Below, piece by piece: positions 34,816-39,698 of a stretch of DNA of 64,000 nucleotides. Numbering within the stretch: the first letter of the stretch is position 1; the number at the start of each line of letters is the position of its first letter. The notes below the pieces were generated by a model, which saw nothing but the letters and a program-made list of their open reading frames with translations, was not told the DNA's origin and did not search any database. The DNA lies in contig NZ_AP022619.1 of assembly GCF_010731655.1 (NCBI RefSeq), positions 4,712,001-4,776,000 of the forward strand, in the 5' to 3' direction. Position numbers and translations under genes: made by a program. The DNA comes from Mycobacterium paraseoulense (GTDB taxonomy: Bacteria; Actinomycetota; Actinomycetes; Mycobacteriales; Mycobacteriaceae).

Positions 34816-36129
34816 GTGAGCACGTCGCAGAACCGGCCGCCGATCAACCGGCGCGTGGCTTTGGCGACCCTCGGACTGGGGGTGTTCGCCCCCAGCCTGC
34901 TCGCCGCGTGCGGCGGAACCACGGCCAAACAGGCCGAGAAGAAGGAGCAGCCCGCGCCGAAGCTGAAGTTCTCACCGGCCGACGCCACCGAGAACGTGGT
35001 CCCGATCGCGCCGATCAGCGTCGAGATCAGCGACGGCTGGTTCCAGCACGTCGCGCTGACCAATTCGGCGGGCAAGGCCGTGGCGGGCAGATTCAACTCC
35101 GACCGCACCGTCTACACCACCACCGAGCCGCTGGGCTACGACGCGACGTACACCTGGAGCGGTTCGGCGGTCGGGCACGACGGCAAGGCGATCCCGGTCA
35201 CCGGCAAGTTCACCACCGTGTCGCCGAGCAAGAAGATCAGTGGGGCATTCCAGCTGGCCGACGGGCAGACCGTCGGGGTGGCGGCGCCGATCATCATCCA
35301 GTTCGACGCGCCGATCAGCGACAAGGCCGCCGTCGAGAAGGCGCTGACGGTCACCACGAATCCGCCCGTCGAGGGCAGCTGGGCGTGGCTGCCCGACGAG
35401 GCGGCGGGCGCCCGGGTGCACTGGCGCACCCGCGAGTACTACCCCGCGGGCACGACCGTCAACGTCGACGCCAAGTTGTACGGCCTGCCGTTCGGTGACA
35501 GCGCCTACGGCGCCGACGACATCTCGCTGAACATCCAGATCGGCCGCCGTCAGGTGGTCAAGGCCGAGGTGACCTCGCACCGCATCCAGGTGATCAGGGA
35601 CGAAGGCGTCATCATGGACTTCCCGTGCAGCTACGGCGAGGCCGACAAGGCGCGCAACGTCACCCGCAACGGCATCCACGTGGTCACCGAGAAGTACGCG
35701 GATTTCTACATGTCCAACCCCGCCGCCGGCTACAGCCACGTGCACGAACGCTGGGCGGTCCGGATCTCCAACAACGGCGAGTTCATCCACGCCAACCCGG
35801 CGAGCGCGGGCGCGCAGGGCAACACCAACGTCACCAACGGCTGCATCAACCTGTCGACCGGCGACGCGGAGCAGTACTTCCAGTCGGCGATCTACGGCGA
35901 CCCGGTCGAGGTGACCGGGAGCTCGATTCAGCTGTCCTACTCCGACGGCGACATCTGGGACTGGGCCGTCGACTGGGACACCTGGGTCGCCATGTCGGCG
36001 CTCCCGCCACCCACCGCACGCCCGCCGTCCACCCAGATCCCGGTGACGGCGCCGGTCACCCCGTCGACCGCCCCGAGCCTGTCCGGCACGCCGACGACGA
36101 CCACCACCACGTCCAGTCCCGGGGGCTAA
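34816..36129 (+). CDS. lprQ: Lipoprotein L,D-transpeptidase LprQ (Ldt5 type)
   Basis: From the GTG at 34816 the protein has 437 residues. A signal peptide ends in the lipobox LLAAC with lipid-modified Cys32. Two immunoglobulin-like domains follow (about 50-250), then the YkuD catalytic domain with Cys343 in VTNGCINLS, and a Pro/Thr-rich tail ending in a run of Thr and Ser. Most L,D-transpeptidases have SHGC at the nucleophile; TNGC is the divergent form seen in Ldt-Mt5 (Rv0483). It forms 3-3 cross-links in peptidoglycan. Its stop overlaps that of the convergent dehydrogenase gene by 4 bases. Confidence 0.93.
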
Positions 36130-36875
36130 CCCCGGCGGTTGAACCGGGTGGCCGACGCCTGGTCGCGCGGCTTCATGACGATCAGGTCGAGGTCGACGCG
36201 GGACGGCCGCGAGGCCACGAAGCCGATCACCTCGGCGACGTCCTCGGCAACCAGCGGCGTCATTCCGGTGTAGACGGCGTCGGCGCGCTGTTGATCGCCG
36301 TCGAAGCGAACCAGCGAGAACTCGGTTTCCACCGCGCCGGGTGCGATCTCGGTCAGCCGCACCGGCTTGCCCAGCAGCTCCCCGCGCAGCGTGCGGTGCA
36401 GCGCGCCCTGGGCGTGTTTGGCCGCGGTGTATCCGGCGCCCCCGTCGTACACCTCAAGTGCGGCAACCGATGTCACCGTGACGATCAGGCCGTCGCCGGA
36501 TTCGATGAGCTTGGGCAGCAGCGCCCGGGTGACCCGCAGCGTGCCCAGCACGTTGGTTTCCCACATCCACCGCCAGTGGTCGAGGTCGGCGTCGGCGACC
36601 GGCGCCAGCCCGCGCGCGCCGCCCGCGTTGTTGACCAGCACGTCGACCCGGCTCAACTCCTCGGCCAGCGAAGCGATCTCCCCGTCGTCTGTGACGTCGG
36701 CCACAATGGCCGTCCCGCCGATCTCCCTGGCCAGGGCGTTGATCCGGTCCGCCCGGCGTGCCACCGCGACCACGTGAAAGCCCTGCGCAGCAAGGGTCTG
36801 GGCGGTCGCCTCGCCGATACCGGAGCTGGCCCCCGTGACCACCGCGACGCGCTCATTCCTGACATTTCCAGCCAT
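36126..36875 (-). CDS. Short-chain dehydrogenase/reductase (Rv0484c-like)
   Basis: A 249-residue classical SDR. The cofactor loop is [12 protein letters not shown] (13-24), NNAG lies near residue 87, and the catalytic Ser and YxxxK are in [26 protein letters not shown] after the second beta strand suggests NADP preference. The substrate is unknown. Its start faces the polycysteine leader ORF of the Rv0485-mshA operon across 35 bases. Confidence 0.85.
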
Positions 36876-36898
36876 CGAAACAACCTTAGTGAACGTGC

Positions 36899-36904
36899 TA
36901 AATT
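36899..36904 (+). promoter_or_regulatory. -10 box for a leaderless transcript starting at the polycysteine ORF
   Basis: TAAATT (36899-36904) fits the mycobacterial -10 consensus TANNNT and ends 6 bases before the GTG at 36911. That spacing puts the transcription start on or next to the GTG, the arrangement of leaderless mRNAs. No clear -35 is seen, which is usual for this group. Confidence 0.6.
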
Positions 36905-36910
36905 TTCGGA

Positions 36911-36997
36911 GTGCACCTCAGCGCCCTGTCCAGCACCACCACCGCGTGTCTTTGCGCGGCGGGTGCGTGTTGTTGTCGCGCACTTTGCCGCTCCTGA
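36911..36997 (+). CDS. Leaderless polycysteine small ORF, candidate cysteine-responsive attenuator of the mshA operon
   Basis: A GTG at 36911 opens a 28-codon frame ending at TGA 36995-36997. The peptide begins VHLSALSSTTTA and then has six cysteines in its last 16 residues, three of them consecutive (CLC, ACCC, LC). A TANNNT -10 box lies 6 bases upstream. Mycobacterial leaderless polycysteine ORFs are an established class that slow ribosomes when cysteine is scarce and so control operons for sulfur metabolism. This one precedes the Rv0485-type regulator and mshA, the first enzyme of mycothiol (a cysteine-containing thiol) synthesis. Stems TGCGCG/CGCGCA (36953-36982) and TGGCC/GGCCA (37008-37023) could form the switch. 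Translation is inferred. Confidence 0.65.
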   Translation: MHLSALSSTTTACLCAAGACCCRALCRS

Positions 36998-37047
36998 CTT
37001 TCAGGTGTGGCCAGTGACGGCCAACGAAAATCGGACAAAGGACGCTC

Positions 37048-38367
37048 GTGCGCTCGAATACCCTCACCCAAGCTCACCATTCAGCTAGCCGCGCCGGCTA
37101 CCAGGGCCACCGTTCGGTGCGCCGTCAGATCGTGCCGCCGGCGCTGCATATCGCCGACTCGGCGGCCGCCTCGGTGTTCCGGGCCGTGCGACTGCGCGGG
37201 CCCGTCGGGCGGGACGTCATCGCGGGCGTCACCTCGCTGAGCATCGCGACGGTCAACCGGCAGGTCATCGCCCTGCTCGACGCCGGCTTGCTGCGGGAAC
37301 GCGCCGACCTCGCCGTCTCCGGAGCGATCGGCCGCCCGCGGGTGCCGGTCGAGGTCAACCACGAACCGTTCGTGACGCTGGGCATCCACATCGGCGCCCG
37401 GACCACCAGCATCGTGGCCGCCGACCTGTTCGGCCGCACCCTGGACACCGTCGAGACACCGACACCGCTCAGTCCCGCCGGCCCCGCGCTGGCGGCCCTG
37501 GCCGAGAGCGCAGCGCGCTACCTGCGGCGCTGGCATCGGCGCCGCCCGTTGTGGGTCGGCGTGGCTATCGGCGGCACGGTCGACGGCGCCACGGGCCACG
37601 TCGACCACCCGCGGCTGGGGTGGCGGCAGGCGCCGGTCGGCCCCGTGCTCGCCGACGCGCTGGGACTGCCCGTGTCGGTGGCCTCGCACGTCGACGCCAT
37701 GGCCGGGGCCGAGCTGCTGCTGGGCATGCGGCGATTCCTGCCCAGCTCGCCCACCAGTCTCTACGTCTACGCCCGCGAGACCGTGGGCTACGCGCTGGTG
37801 ATCGGCGGACGGGTGCACTGCCCGGCCAGCGGCCCCGGCACCATCGCGGCCCTGCCGGCCCGTTCCGAGCTGCTCGGCGGCGCCGGCCAGCTGGAATCCA
37901 CCGTCAGCGACGAGGCGGTGCTGGCCGCCGCCCGCCGGTTGCGGATCCTGCCGTTCGCCCCGCCGGGCGGCCCCAACGCCTCGGCCGCCGGCATCACCGA
38001 CCTGCTGCGGGTGGCCCGGACCGGCAACGAGCAGGCCAAGGACCTGCTCAACGAGCGGGGCCGGGTCCTCGGCGAGGCGGTGGCGTTGCTGCGCGACATG
38101 CTCAACCCCGACGAACTGGTGGTCGGAGGCCAGGCCTTCACCGAGTATCCCGAGGCGATGGAGCACGTCGAGGCGGCGTTCGCCGAACGCTCGGTGCTGC
38201 CGCCGCGCGACATTCGCGTCACGGTCTTCGGCAACCGGGTGCAGGAGGCCGGTGCGGGGACCGTGTCGCTGGGCGGGCTGTACGCCGACCCGCTCGGTGC
38301 GATGCGGCGGGCGGGCGCGCTGAACCCGCGGGTGCGCGAGGTCGGCGCCGACGAGTCTTCCGCTTAA
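37048..38367 (+). CDS. ROK family transcriptional regulator (Rv0485-like)
   Basis: A 439-residue protein from the GTG at 37048, preceded by AAAGGA. An N-terminal winged helix-turn-helix ([20 protein letters not shown], then [16 protein letters not shown]) is fused to a ROK-type sugar-kinase fold ([34 protein letters not shown]). The CxCGxxGCxE zinc motif of ROK proteins is absent, so sugar sensing of the classical kind is doubtful. Rv0485 is known to affect a PE/PPE pair and virulence. It is upstream of mshA in the same direction, behind the polycysteine leader. Confidence 0.88.
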
Positions 38368-38426: not shown

Positions 38427-39698
38427 GTGCGGCACGATGACGTCTTCCGGCTGAAACCGCGCCGCGTCGCAGTGTTGGCGGTGCACACCTCACCGCTGGC
38501 CCAGCCGGGCACCGGCGACGCCGGGGGCATGAACGTCTACGTGCTCCAAACCGCGCTGCACCTGGCGCGGCGCGGCATCGAGGTGGAGATCTTCACCCGG
38601 GCCACCGCGTCCGCCGACCCGCCCGTCGCGCGGGTGGCGCCCGGCGTGCTGGTGCGCAACGTGGTGGCGGGCCCGTTCGAGGGCCTGGACAAATACGACC
38701 TGCCCACGCAGCTGTGTGCCTTCGCCGCGGGGGTGCTGCGCGCCGAAGCGTCGCACGAACCGGGCTACTACGACATCGTGCACTCGCATTACTGGCTGTC
38801 CGGACAGGTGGGCTGGCTGGCCCGCGACCGCTGGGCGGTGCCGCTGGTGCACACCGCGCACACGCTCGCCGCGGTCAAGAACGCGGCCCTGGCCGCGGGC
38901 GACGCGCCCGAGCCGCCACTGCGCACAATCGGCGAGCAGCAGGTGGTCGACGAGGCGGACCGGCTGATCGTCAACACCGAAGACGAAGCCAGGCAACTGG
39001 TTTCGATCCACCGCGCCGACCCGGCCCGGATCGACGTCGTCCACCCGGGGGTGGATCTCGAGGTATTCCGCCCGGGCGACCGCCGGGCGGCGCGGGCCGC
39101 GCTGGGGTTGCCGCTGGACGAGGACGTCGTCGCGTTCGTCGGGCGGATCCAGCCGTTGAAGGCGCCCGACATCGTCCTGCGCGCCGCCGCGAAATTGCCG
39201 GGCGTGCGCATCGTGGTGGCGGGCGGCCCGTCGGGCAGCGGCATGGCGTCCCCGGACGGGCTGCGGCGGCTGGCCGACGAGCTCGGCATCGCGGCGCGGG
39301 TGACGTTCCTGCCGCCGCAGCCCCGCACGGACCTGGCCACCTTGTTCCGCGCCGCCAGCCTGGTCGCCGTTCCGAGTTATTCGGAGTCGTTCGGCCTGGT
39401 GGCCGTCGAGGCGCAGGCGTGCGGGACGCCGGTGGTCGCCGCCGCGGTCGGCGGCCTGCCGGTGGCGGTGCGCGACGGGATCACCGGCACGCTGGTGTCC
39501 GGCCACGACGTCGACCAGTGGGCCGACGCCCTGGACGGGGTGCTGCGGCTGCGCGGGCCCAAGGCCGAGGCGATGAGCCGCGCGGCCGCCGCGCACGCGG
39601 CCACCTTCTCCTGGGAGAACACCACGGACGCGCTGCTGGCCAGCTATCGCCGCGCGATCAGCGAATACACCGCCGAGCGCCGGGGGGTGGGCGCGTGA
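38427..39698 (+). CDS. mshA: D-inositol-3-phosphate glycosyltransferase MshA
   Basis: A 423-residue GT4 glycosyltransferase. I chose the GTG at 38427 because the following RHDDVF matches the M. avium complex start; a GTG at 38397 would add 10 residues. The donor/acceptor loop is [14 protein letters not shown], and the EX7E-type motif is [21 protein letters not shown]. It joins GlcNAc from UDP-GlcNAc to 1D-myo-inositol 3-phosphate, the first step of mycothiol synthesis, in the cytosol. The stop (TGA 39696-39698) overlaps a GTG opening a tiny ORF in a MIRU-like linker. The shortened C terminus (ending TAERRGVGA) lacks the longer tail of M. tuberculosis MshA. Confidence 0.94.

What the first reader, a model, noticed from the sequence alone, without database searches (positions are those of the whole stretch)
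36899..37047. Leaderless polycysteine ORF in front of the Rv0485-mshA (mycothiol) operon
A 28-codon GTG ORF (36911-36997) has six Cys codons in its last 16, including three in a row, and a TANNNT box ends 6 bases upstream of the GTG, so the mRNA is probably leaderless. Polycysteine leaderless ORFs are known cysteine-responsive attenuators of sulfur genes in mycobacteria. Placing one before mshA would couple mycothiol synthesis, the main thiol pool, to cysteine supply through translation. I do not know whether this locus has been described.
Basis: partly seen in the sequence, partly recalled or inferred. Interest (0 to 1): 0.8.

Follow-up and report, generated by a model that had tools for sequence, protein, structure and literature searches.

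The report
Cysteine-rich leader peptide before Rv0485
A tiny cysteine-rich reading frame at the very start of the Rv0485-mshA message is real and strongly conserved, and its mycobacterial form is already in print; its relatives in Rhodococcus and Nocardia carry a conserved peptide instead, and they follow the regulator gene Rv0485 rather than the mycothiol gene.

Summary
It is not chance: 110 of 110 genus loci read have a Cys-rich sORF with TANNNT ending 6-8 nt before its start, against 47 of 1172 other ATG/GTG there. The locus is in print: Shell et al. 2015 (PMC4633059; passages and Fig 7 legend) list a Cys-rich leaderless uORF before Rv0485/Msmeg_0932 and propose attenuation. The mshA reading is weaker. 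Outside the genus a related sORF stays in front of Rv0485 (79 of 80 named loci), while mshA is over 250 kb away in 20 genomes. There it encodes a conserved peptide, VTYVTxALGxRLPxxRxLCC, with variable synonymous codons; its motif strings occur in no paper of the library. Partner-swap tests favour sequestration of the Rv0485 ribosome-binding site, by the sORF 5' end in the window's group and by post-stop RNA in the other, but consensus folding does not show it. In the model one stalled ribosome rarely opens it; a ribosome queue does. The cysteine response is untested here.

The parts
36896..36904 (+). extended -10 box TGC-TAAATT of the presumed leaderless promoter
   Evidence: sequence; TGN before the box in 110 of 110 genus loci; no -35 match
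36911..36997 (+). GTG sORF, 28 codons, VHLSALSSTTTACLCAAGACCCRALCRS, presumed leaderless
   Evidence: conserved in 110 of 110 genus loci read
36968..36976 (+). Cys-Cys-Cys run (TGT TGT TGT), proposed sensor codons; first two run codons are TGT in 114/116 and 113/116 runs across 110 sORFs
36911..36931 (+). 5' arm of the sORF (GUGCAC, AGCG, CC, UGUCC), predicted to pair with the Rv0485 SD and start
   Evidence: folds; swap test z=-4.0, 0 of 2000 permutations
37008..37023 (+). local hairpin UGGCC...GGCCA between sORF stop and SD (alternative to the long-range fold)
   Evidence: sequence; GGC/GCC pairing kept in 59-60 of 60 sequences
37033..37053 (+). sequestered region: GGACA, SD (AAAGGAC) and first two codons of Rv0485
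37048..38367 (+). Rv0485 ortholog, ROK family (NagC/Mlc-like), first gene after the leader
   Evidence: Pfam ROK 1.2e-16; partial NagC/Mlc match far below cut-off
38427..39698 (+). mshA, D-inositol-3-phosphate glycosyltransferase, second gene, 59 nt after Rv0485 (start codon chosen among several)
   Evidence: TIGR03449 669 bits, cut-off 462.5; starts
36126..36875 (-). divergent short-chain dehydrogenase gene
   Evidence: Pfam adh_short 3.1e-45

Best explanation
The sORF is a cysteine-sensing leader that sits first on the Rv0485(-mshA) mRNA. Transcription starts at or next to the GTG and ribosomes load directly on the leaderless start. When charged Cys-tRNA is plentiful, ribosomes clear the sORF and the RNA folds so that the Rv0485 ribosome-binding site and start codon are paired (in the window's group with the sORF's own first seven codons), keeping Rv0485 and the genes after it low. 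When Cys-tRNA is short, ribosomes stall at the UGU-UGU-UGY run; the following ribosomes queue back to the 5' end and hold that pairing arm open, which exposes the Rv0485 start. The direct, evolutionarily constant target is Rv0485, a ROK-family protein, probably a regulator; mshA is co-regulated where it follows in the operon. Shown here: sORF, -10 box, conservation, synteny, codon bias and pairing potential. Inferred: transcript start, translation, cysteine response and the queue step.
For: 110 of 110 genus loci with a Cys-rich sORF behind a -10 box. UGU at the first two run positions in 114/116 and 113/116, although 7 window genes use TGC 11 times and TGT once. Leader folds at -71.1 kcal/mol, z -4.45, 0 of 200 shuffles as good. 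Swap test, where each species' segment is paired with another species' partner: in the window's group (17 representatives) 5' arm x SD+start is the strongest of 21 segment pairs, z=-4.0, 0 of 2000; in the second group (30 representatives) SD+start is best matched by the 27 nt after the stop, z=-3.4, 0 of 2000. GTCC lies between stop and start in 46 of 50 of the second group and 0 of 60 of the first; the first has GTCC or GTTC in the 5' arm in 53 of 60. Modelled SD opening cost in the first group: free 10.2, ribosomes queued from polyCys to start 4.4 kcal/mol, lower by more than 1 in 59 of 60; in the second group 33 of 50. Literature: Shell 2015 reports a uORF here (passages); Dinan 2014 reports high 5'UTR-to-CDS signal for the Rv0485 orthologs of M. 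marinum and M. bovis (section 9); Canestrari 2020 is cited as showing cysteine-responsive attenuation by such sORFs (title in reference lists seen; paper not held).
Against: A single ribosome on the Cys run hardly opens the SD in the model (first group mean 10.05 against 10.24 free; lower by more than 1 in 8 of 60, second group 4 of 50), so the simple version fails and the queue step was added after seeing this; that blocking the 5' arm frees its partner is partly built in. RNAalifold found almost no consensus structure (60 sequences: -9.4 kcal/mol, 1 compensatory pair, and it paired the 5' end otherwise; 50 sequences: none). The swap test also gives large values the other way (postStop x preSD z=+3.4 in the second group, preSD x SD+start z=+3.7 over all representatives) and, in the outgroups, z=-4.5 for a pair not involving the SD, so its null is too narrow. 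21 segment pairs were tested in each of three sets and 15 in a fourth. High leader-to-gene signal would also fit premature termination. No expression data on this species were seen.
Confidence: 0.7

Rival explanations
1. Transcription attenuation: the leader peptide controls premature (Rho-dependent or pause-linked) termination before Rv0485, not access to its ribosome-binding site.
For: High 5'UTR-to-CDS RNA ratio for Rv0485 orthologs in two species; Seliverstov 2005 proposed Rho for other mycobacterial Cys leaders (passages). The scan found two overlapping terminator-like hits whose 'T tail' is the UGU run (2 found, 0.3 expected). The consensus-structure negatives.
Against: No hairpin with a U run between the sORF stop and the Rv0485 start in the window. 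The swap test favours pairing of SD+start in both genus groups.
Confidence: 0.35
2. mshA is the selected target and Rv0485 is a passenger.
For: mshA directly follows in Mycobacterium (59 nt here; match ends within 100 bp in 8 of 10 genus genomes) and mycothiol contains cysteine (known biochemistry).
Against: 79 of 80 named sORF loci outside the genus sit before Rv0485; mshA is more than 250 kb away on the same contig in 20 of the genomes with the sORF. Two genomes with a pseudogene Rv0485 also have a decayed sORF, though in one of them the mshA alignment has one stop.
Confidence: 0.2
3. The peptide itself is a trans-acting small protein (for example Cys-based metal or thiol binding).
For: Outside Mycobacterium about 20 residues are conserved with variable codons.
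Against: In Mycobacterium the sequence varies widely apart from the Cys run and a short Arg/Ala tail; no NCBIfam match for 4 peptides tried; position at the presumed mRNA 5' end, in front of the same gene.
Confidence: 0.08
4. Chance ORF in GC-rich DNA.
For: Short; no family model.
Confidence: 0.01

Closest known systems
Cys-rich leaderless uORF upstream of Rv0485/Msmeg_0932 (Shell et al. 2015, PMC4633059, Fig 7B; passages and part of the legend read)
   Same: Same gene context, leaderless start, Cys-rich conserved peptide, attenuation proposed
   Different: They call the downstream gene putative hypothetical; mshA and mycothiol do not occur in the main text. No wider distribution, structure or non-mycobacterial form in the passages read. 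The peptide letters of the figure were not seen
Polycysteine leaderless sORF attenuators of mycobacteria (Canestrari et al. 2020, doi 10.1111/mmi.14498; title in reference lists only; further content recalled)
   Same: Leaderless start, polyCys run, upstream of operons
   Different: Whether Rv0485/mshA is among the loci they tested could not be checked; the paper is not held
Leader peptides with Cys runs before cys operons (Seliverstov et al. 2005, PMC1262725; passages)
   Same: Short ORF with Cys codons near its stop, no obvious terminator
   Different: Other genes (cys operons, cbs); Rv0485 and mshA do not occur in the main text
ilvB1 transcription attenuator of M. tuberculosis (PMC13236596; passages)
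   Same: Amino-acid-sensing uORF, ribosome stalling logic
   Different: Has a Rho-independent terminator and anti-terminator; none was found here after the sORF

Membership tests
Polycysteine leaderless sORF attenuators (mycobacteria) | leaderless mRNA starting at GTG/ATG | tested here: inconclusive
   -10 box at 6-8 nt and extended TGN in all 110 loci point to it; transcript start not measured here; Shell 2015 lists the Rv0485 uORF among leaderless mRNAs
Polycysteine leaderless sORF attenuators (mycobacteria) | conserved run of Cys codons near the sORF end | tested here: met
   run of 3 or more in 104 of 110, 2 in 6 of 110
Polycysteine leaderless sORF attenuators (mycobacteria) | located directly upstream of the controlled gene on the same strand | tested here: met
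   50-97 nt from sORF stop to Rv0485 start in 110 of 110; the loci were chosen by a match to this region
Polycysteine leaderless sORF attenuators (mycobacteria) | downstream RBS sequestered by RNA structure | tested here: inconclusive
   swap test positive but with large opposite values too; RNAalifold consensus negative
Polycysteine leaderless sORF attenuators (mycobacteria) | downstream expression rises on cysteine limitation | not testable with these tools
   needs a reporter or proteomics
Classical transcription attenuator (trp, ilvB1 type) | intrinsic terminator between leader ORF and gene | tested here: not met
   none after the sORF stop in the window; no Rfam match up to E 1 in 36600-37400

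The most novel reading that the evidence does not exclude
The mycobacterial polycysteine leader is one form, probably the derived one, of a leaderless sORF found across the family (Mycobacteriaceae in the GTDB sense; name inferred), whose widespread form carries a conserved nascent peptide (R/E)VTYVTxALG(S/C)RLPxxR(E/V)LCC ending in UGU-UGU. That peptide would be a new ribosome-arresting sensor of cysteine or thiol state dedicated to Rv0485, which would make the ROK protein Rv0485 a sulfur/thiol regulator. Support: sites in 98 of 151 family genomes and 19 of 31 genera (E <= 0.001); draws of 200 order and 296 class genomes gave hits only in same-family genomes (8 and 7; how many genomes of other families were drawn was not counted). 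Five genus members carry both the conserved peptide and an extended Cys tail (L113-L117). Codons vary synonymously. Two extra copies stand before a family-5 ABC solute-binding protein.
Probability: 0.45. Interest if true: 0.7.

Novelty: already known. Interest (0 to 1): 0.42.

Why it matters
As it stands in the window the feature is in print, so its own novelty is low. What the follow-up adds is testable: it moves the likely target from mshA to Rv0485, offers a reason why a ROK protein should answer to cysteine, predicts a ribosome-queue mechanism instead of a simple stall, and points to a conserved leader peptide in Rhodococcus and Nocardia whose motif strings occur in no paper of the library searched.

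Tried and rejected
Simple stall model (one ribosome at the Cys run opens the SD): not borne out. RNAalifold consensus on MAFFT alignments gave no useful structure. In some searches some Rv0485 starts were misplaced; they were redone, and supersede them. A tree of 140 Rv0485 fragments (145 columns) put the hybrid-type row L113 among rows of the window's group on a long branch in an open fork; a 33-row full-length tree left the hybrid rows in an unresolved fork at the base of the genus. So the order of events (conserved peptide first) is favoured by the outgroups but not proven. An intrinsic terminator after the sORF, Rfam families and NCBIfam peptide families gave nothing. In the Rhodococcus/Nocardia set (40 representatives of 69 loci with a placed SD, of 80) SD pairing was weaker (tail+stop x SD+start z=-2.6, 7 of 2000).

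Group labels: A1 is L003-L063 without L058 (60 loci) and A2 the other 50; the split was made by similarity rank and inspection. Five rows labelled A2 (four of them in the A2 alignment) fall beside A1 in the tree.

Full report
Check. The sORF, its six Cys codons and the -10 box are as described. The window lies in a 6.09-Mb single-contig genome whose name the tools do not give; I infer a Mycobacterium from the gene order known for Rv0485-mshA. The ORF stands between a divergent short-chain dehydrogenase and a ROK-family gene followed 59 nt later by mshA. In the 64-kb window it is the only Cys-bearing leaderless-like sORF (of 2), and simulations of the same composition gave none with 3 Cys in 5.

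Conservation in the genus. 185 of 198 genus genomes match the 641-bp region. I read 110 loci (30, 80 fetched). All 110 have a Cys-rich sORF ending 50-97 nt before the Rv0485 start, and all have TANNNT ending 6-8 nt before its start codon, with TGN before it. Of 30 further genomes searched by protein (the 13 without a DNA match plus 17 weaker ones), none of the 13 has an Rv0485 ortholog (9 nothing, 4 only distant ROK paralogs). Of 15 loci with an ortholog of 60% identity or more, 14 have a Cys sORF behind a -10 box; L126, where the first 80 residues of Rv0485 are not matched, has none. Three more genus genomes in the family draw have it too (L149, L151, L152). About 55 of the 185 matching genomes were never looked at closely.

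Codons. Among runs of two or more Cys in the 110 sORFs the first codon is TGT in 114 of 116 and the second in 113 of 116, while seven genes of the window use TGC 11 times and TGT once. In some of the 12 leaders folded the tract lies in a hairpin loop.

Outside the genus. 98 of 151 family genomes (19 of 31 genera) have a site matching the conserved sORF peptide at E <= 0.001. None of the ten genus members in that draw reaches this. In 75 loci examined by script (5 of them the genus hybrids, 2 the extra copies), 56 fitted the first motif and all 56 have a -10 box; the other 19 have a more diverged form behind a -10 box (the script for the 19 asked for a box). Of 80 named loci (Rhodococcus, Nocardia, Rhodococcoides, Prescottella, Millisia, Speluncibacter; the best 80 of 184), 80 have the box and 79 have an Rv0485 ortholog downstream on the same strand; the other is one of the extra copies. 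Amino acids are constant while codons differ (Gly GGT 23, GGC 15, GGA 7, GGG 4; Ser TCA 11, TCT 10, TCG 10, TCC 10; 49 distinct blocks, one locus not parsed), so the peptide is under selection; the two Cys codons are TGT in 48 and 45 of 49. Against generality: Rv0485 orthologs in several other genera have no peptide at that E-value (for example G198, G221, G223, G255, G274). The small genomes of genus g3 (Corynebacterium-like by size, inferred) have no peptide hit and only weaker ROK matches. Draws of 200 order and 296 class genomes gave hits only in same-family genomes; how many genomes of other families they held was not counted.

mshA linkage. In 20 genomes that have the peptide site, Rv0485 and mshA are on the same contig but more than 250 kb apart: G205, G207, G213, G214, G236, G248, G260, G268, G273, G276, G279, G292, G299, G304, G310, G311, G315, G321, G332, G336 (read off the lists by hand). 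In others mshA is 0.9-25 kb away (for example G329, G325, G263, G275). So the constant partner of the sORF is Rv0485. In the two 3.3-Mb genomes with a pseudogene Rv0485 (G075, G115) the leader DNA is still recognisable, but the sORF no longer reads as a Cys-rich leaderless ORF; mshA aligns at 84-87% identity over nearly its full length, with no stop in one and one stop in the other. These are two genomes, possibly one event, so weak evidence.

Structure. The window leader folds far better than shuffles, with sORF codons 1-7 paired to GGACA, the SD and the first two Rv0485 codons. To test this beyond one sequence I compared native duplex energies with those after swapping partners between species, using representatives with few shared 6-mers. 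The 5' arm with SD+start stands out in the window's group (z=-4.0); the post-stop segment with SD+start (-3.4), and the Cys tract with the sORF tail (-3.8), stand out in the other. Values of +3.4 and +3.7 for other pairs show that the permutation null is too narrow, so these z-scores are not to be read as probabilities. The GTCC motif moves accordingly: 0 of 60 against 46 of 50 between stop and start. RNAalifold did not recover this, so the evidence is moderate. In the ensemble model a single ribosome on the Cys run changes little (lower by more than 1 kcal/mol in 8 of 60 and 4 of 50), while ribosomes filling the sORF back to its start lower the opening cost by 5.8 kcal/mol on average in the window's group (59 of 60) and by 1.9 in the other (33 of 50; 4 of 50 rise by more than 1). 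In the second group a ribosome at the Cys run leaves the SD slightly more open than one at the stop (mean -0.78; 26 of 50 lower by more than 1, 10 of 50 higher). The model treats a ribosome only as a footprint that cannot pair.

Literature. Shell et al. 2015 (passages and part of the Fig 7 legend read) already show a Cys-rich uORF here in M. tuberculosis and M. smegmatis and suggest attenuation. Smith et al. 2022 (passages) speak of six predicted regulatory Cys-rich sORFs in M. tuberculosis without naming Rv0485 or mshA in the main text. Dinan et al. 2014 (section 9 read) list Rv0485 orthologs among genes with high leader signal. Canestrari et al. 2020 is not held, so its loci are not checked. 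Four motif strings of the conserved peptide occur in no paper of the library; no paper holds both Rv0485 and mshA. Searches for leader peptides in these genera showed nothing on it in their listings; I read passages of Seliverstov 2005. Subscription papers are mostly not covered.

Verdict. A real, strongly conserved leader of a known kind at a known locus, with a corrected likely target and a wider, apparently undescribed conserved-peptide form outside the genus.

Noticed in passing
L173-L240 (most next to Rv0485 by coordinates) and named loci L251-L330: Leaderless-type sORF with conserved peptide VTYVTxALGxRLPxxRxLCC across Rhodococcus, Nocardia and relatives; no NCBIfam model for the peptides tried and no paper with its motif strings found.
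   Followed up: partly
L241 (258-371), L242 (263-394); L260 is the L241 site in a named record: Extra copies of the conserved-peptide sORF in front of a family-5 ABC solute-binding protein (Pfam SBP_bac_5), in two genomes, one of them Rhodococcus sp. SMB37.
   Followed up: partly
G000:C1 near 3374521 (loci L346, L347): A second leaderless-type polyCys sORF in the window's genome, VLARLEPLLTQRRAVDLCRTAGCCCRCSC, about 47 nt before a DUF4395 membrane-protein ORF. Only 30 of 33 matches of one strict pattern were looked at, so others may exist.
   Followed up: partly
window 36968-36976 and homologous sites: Near-fixed UGU-UGU at the start of the Cys run although UGC is the usual codon in the window's genes; possibly a loop, pause or slow-decoding requirement.
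   Followed up: partly
window 36953-36969: Terminator-like hairpin whose U-rich tail is the Cys-codon tract itself (2 overlapping hits against 0.3 expected); might be a transcription pause site.
   Followed up: no
G002, G044, G079, G085, G086, G126, G127, G182, G194: Genus members without any Rv0485 match; what precedes their mshA was not examined.
   Followed up: no
L113-L117: Hybrid sORF in five genus genomes: conserved peptide GSRLPLARELCC plus an extra Cys-rich tail RCVCRCA.
   Followed up: partly
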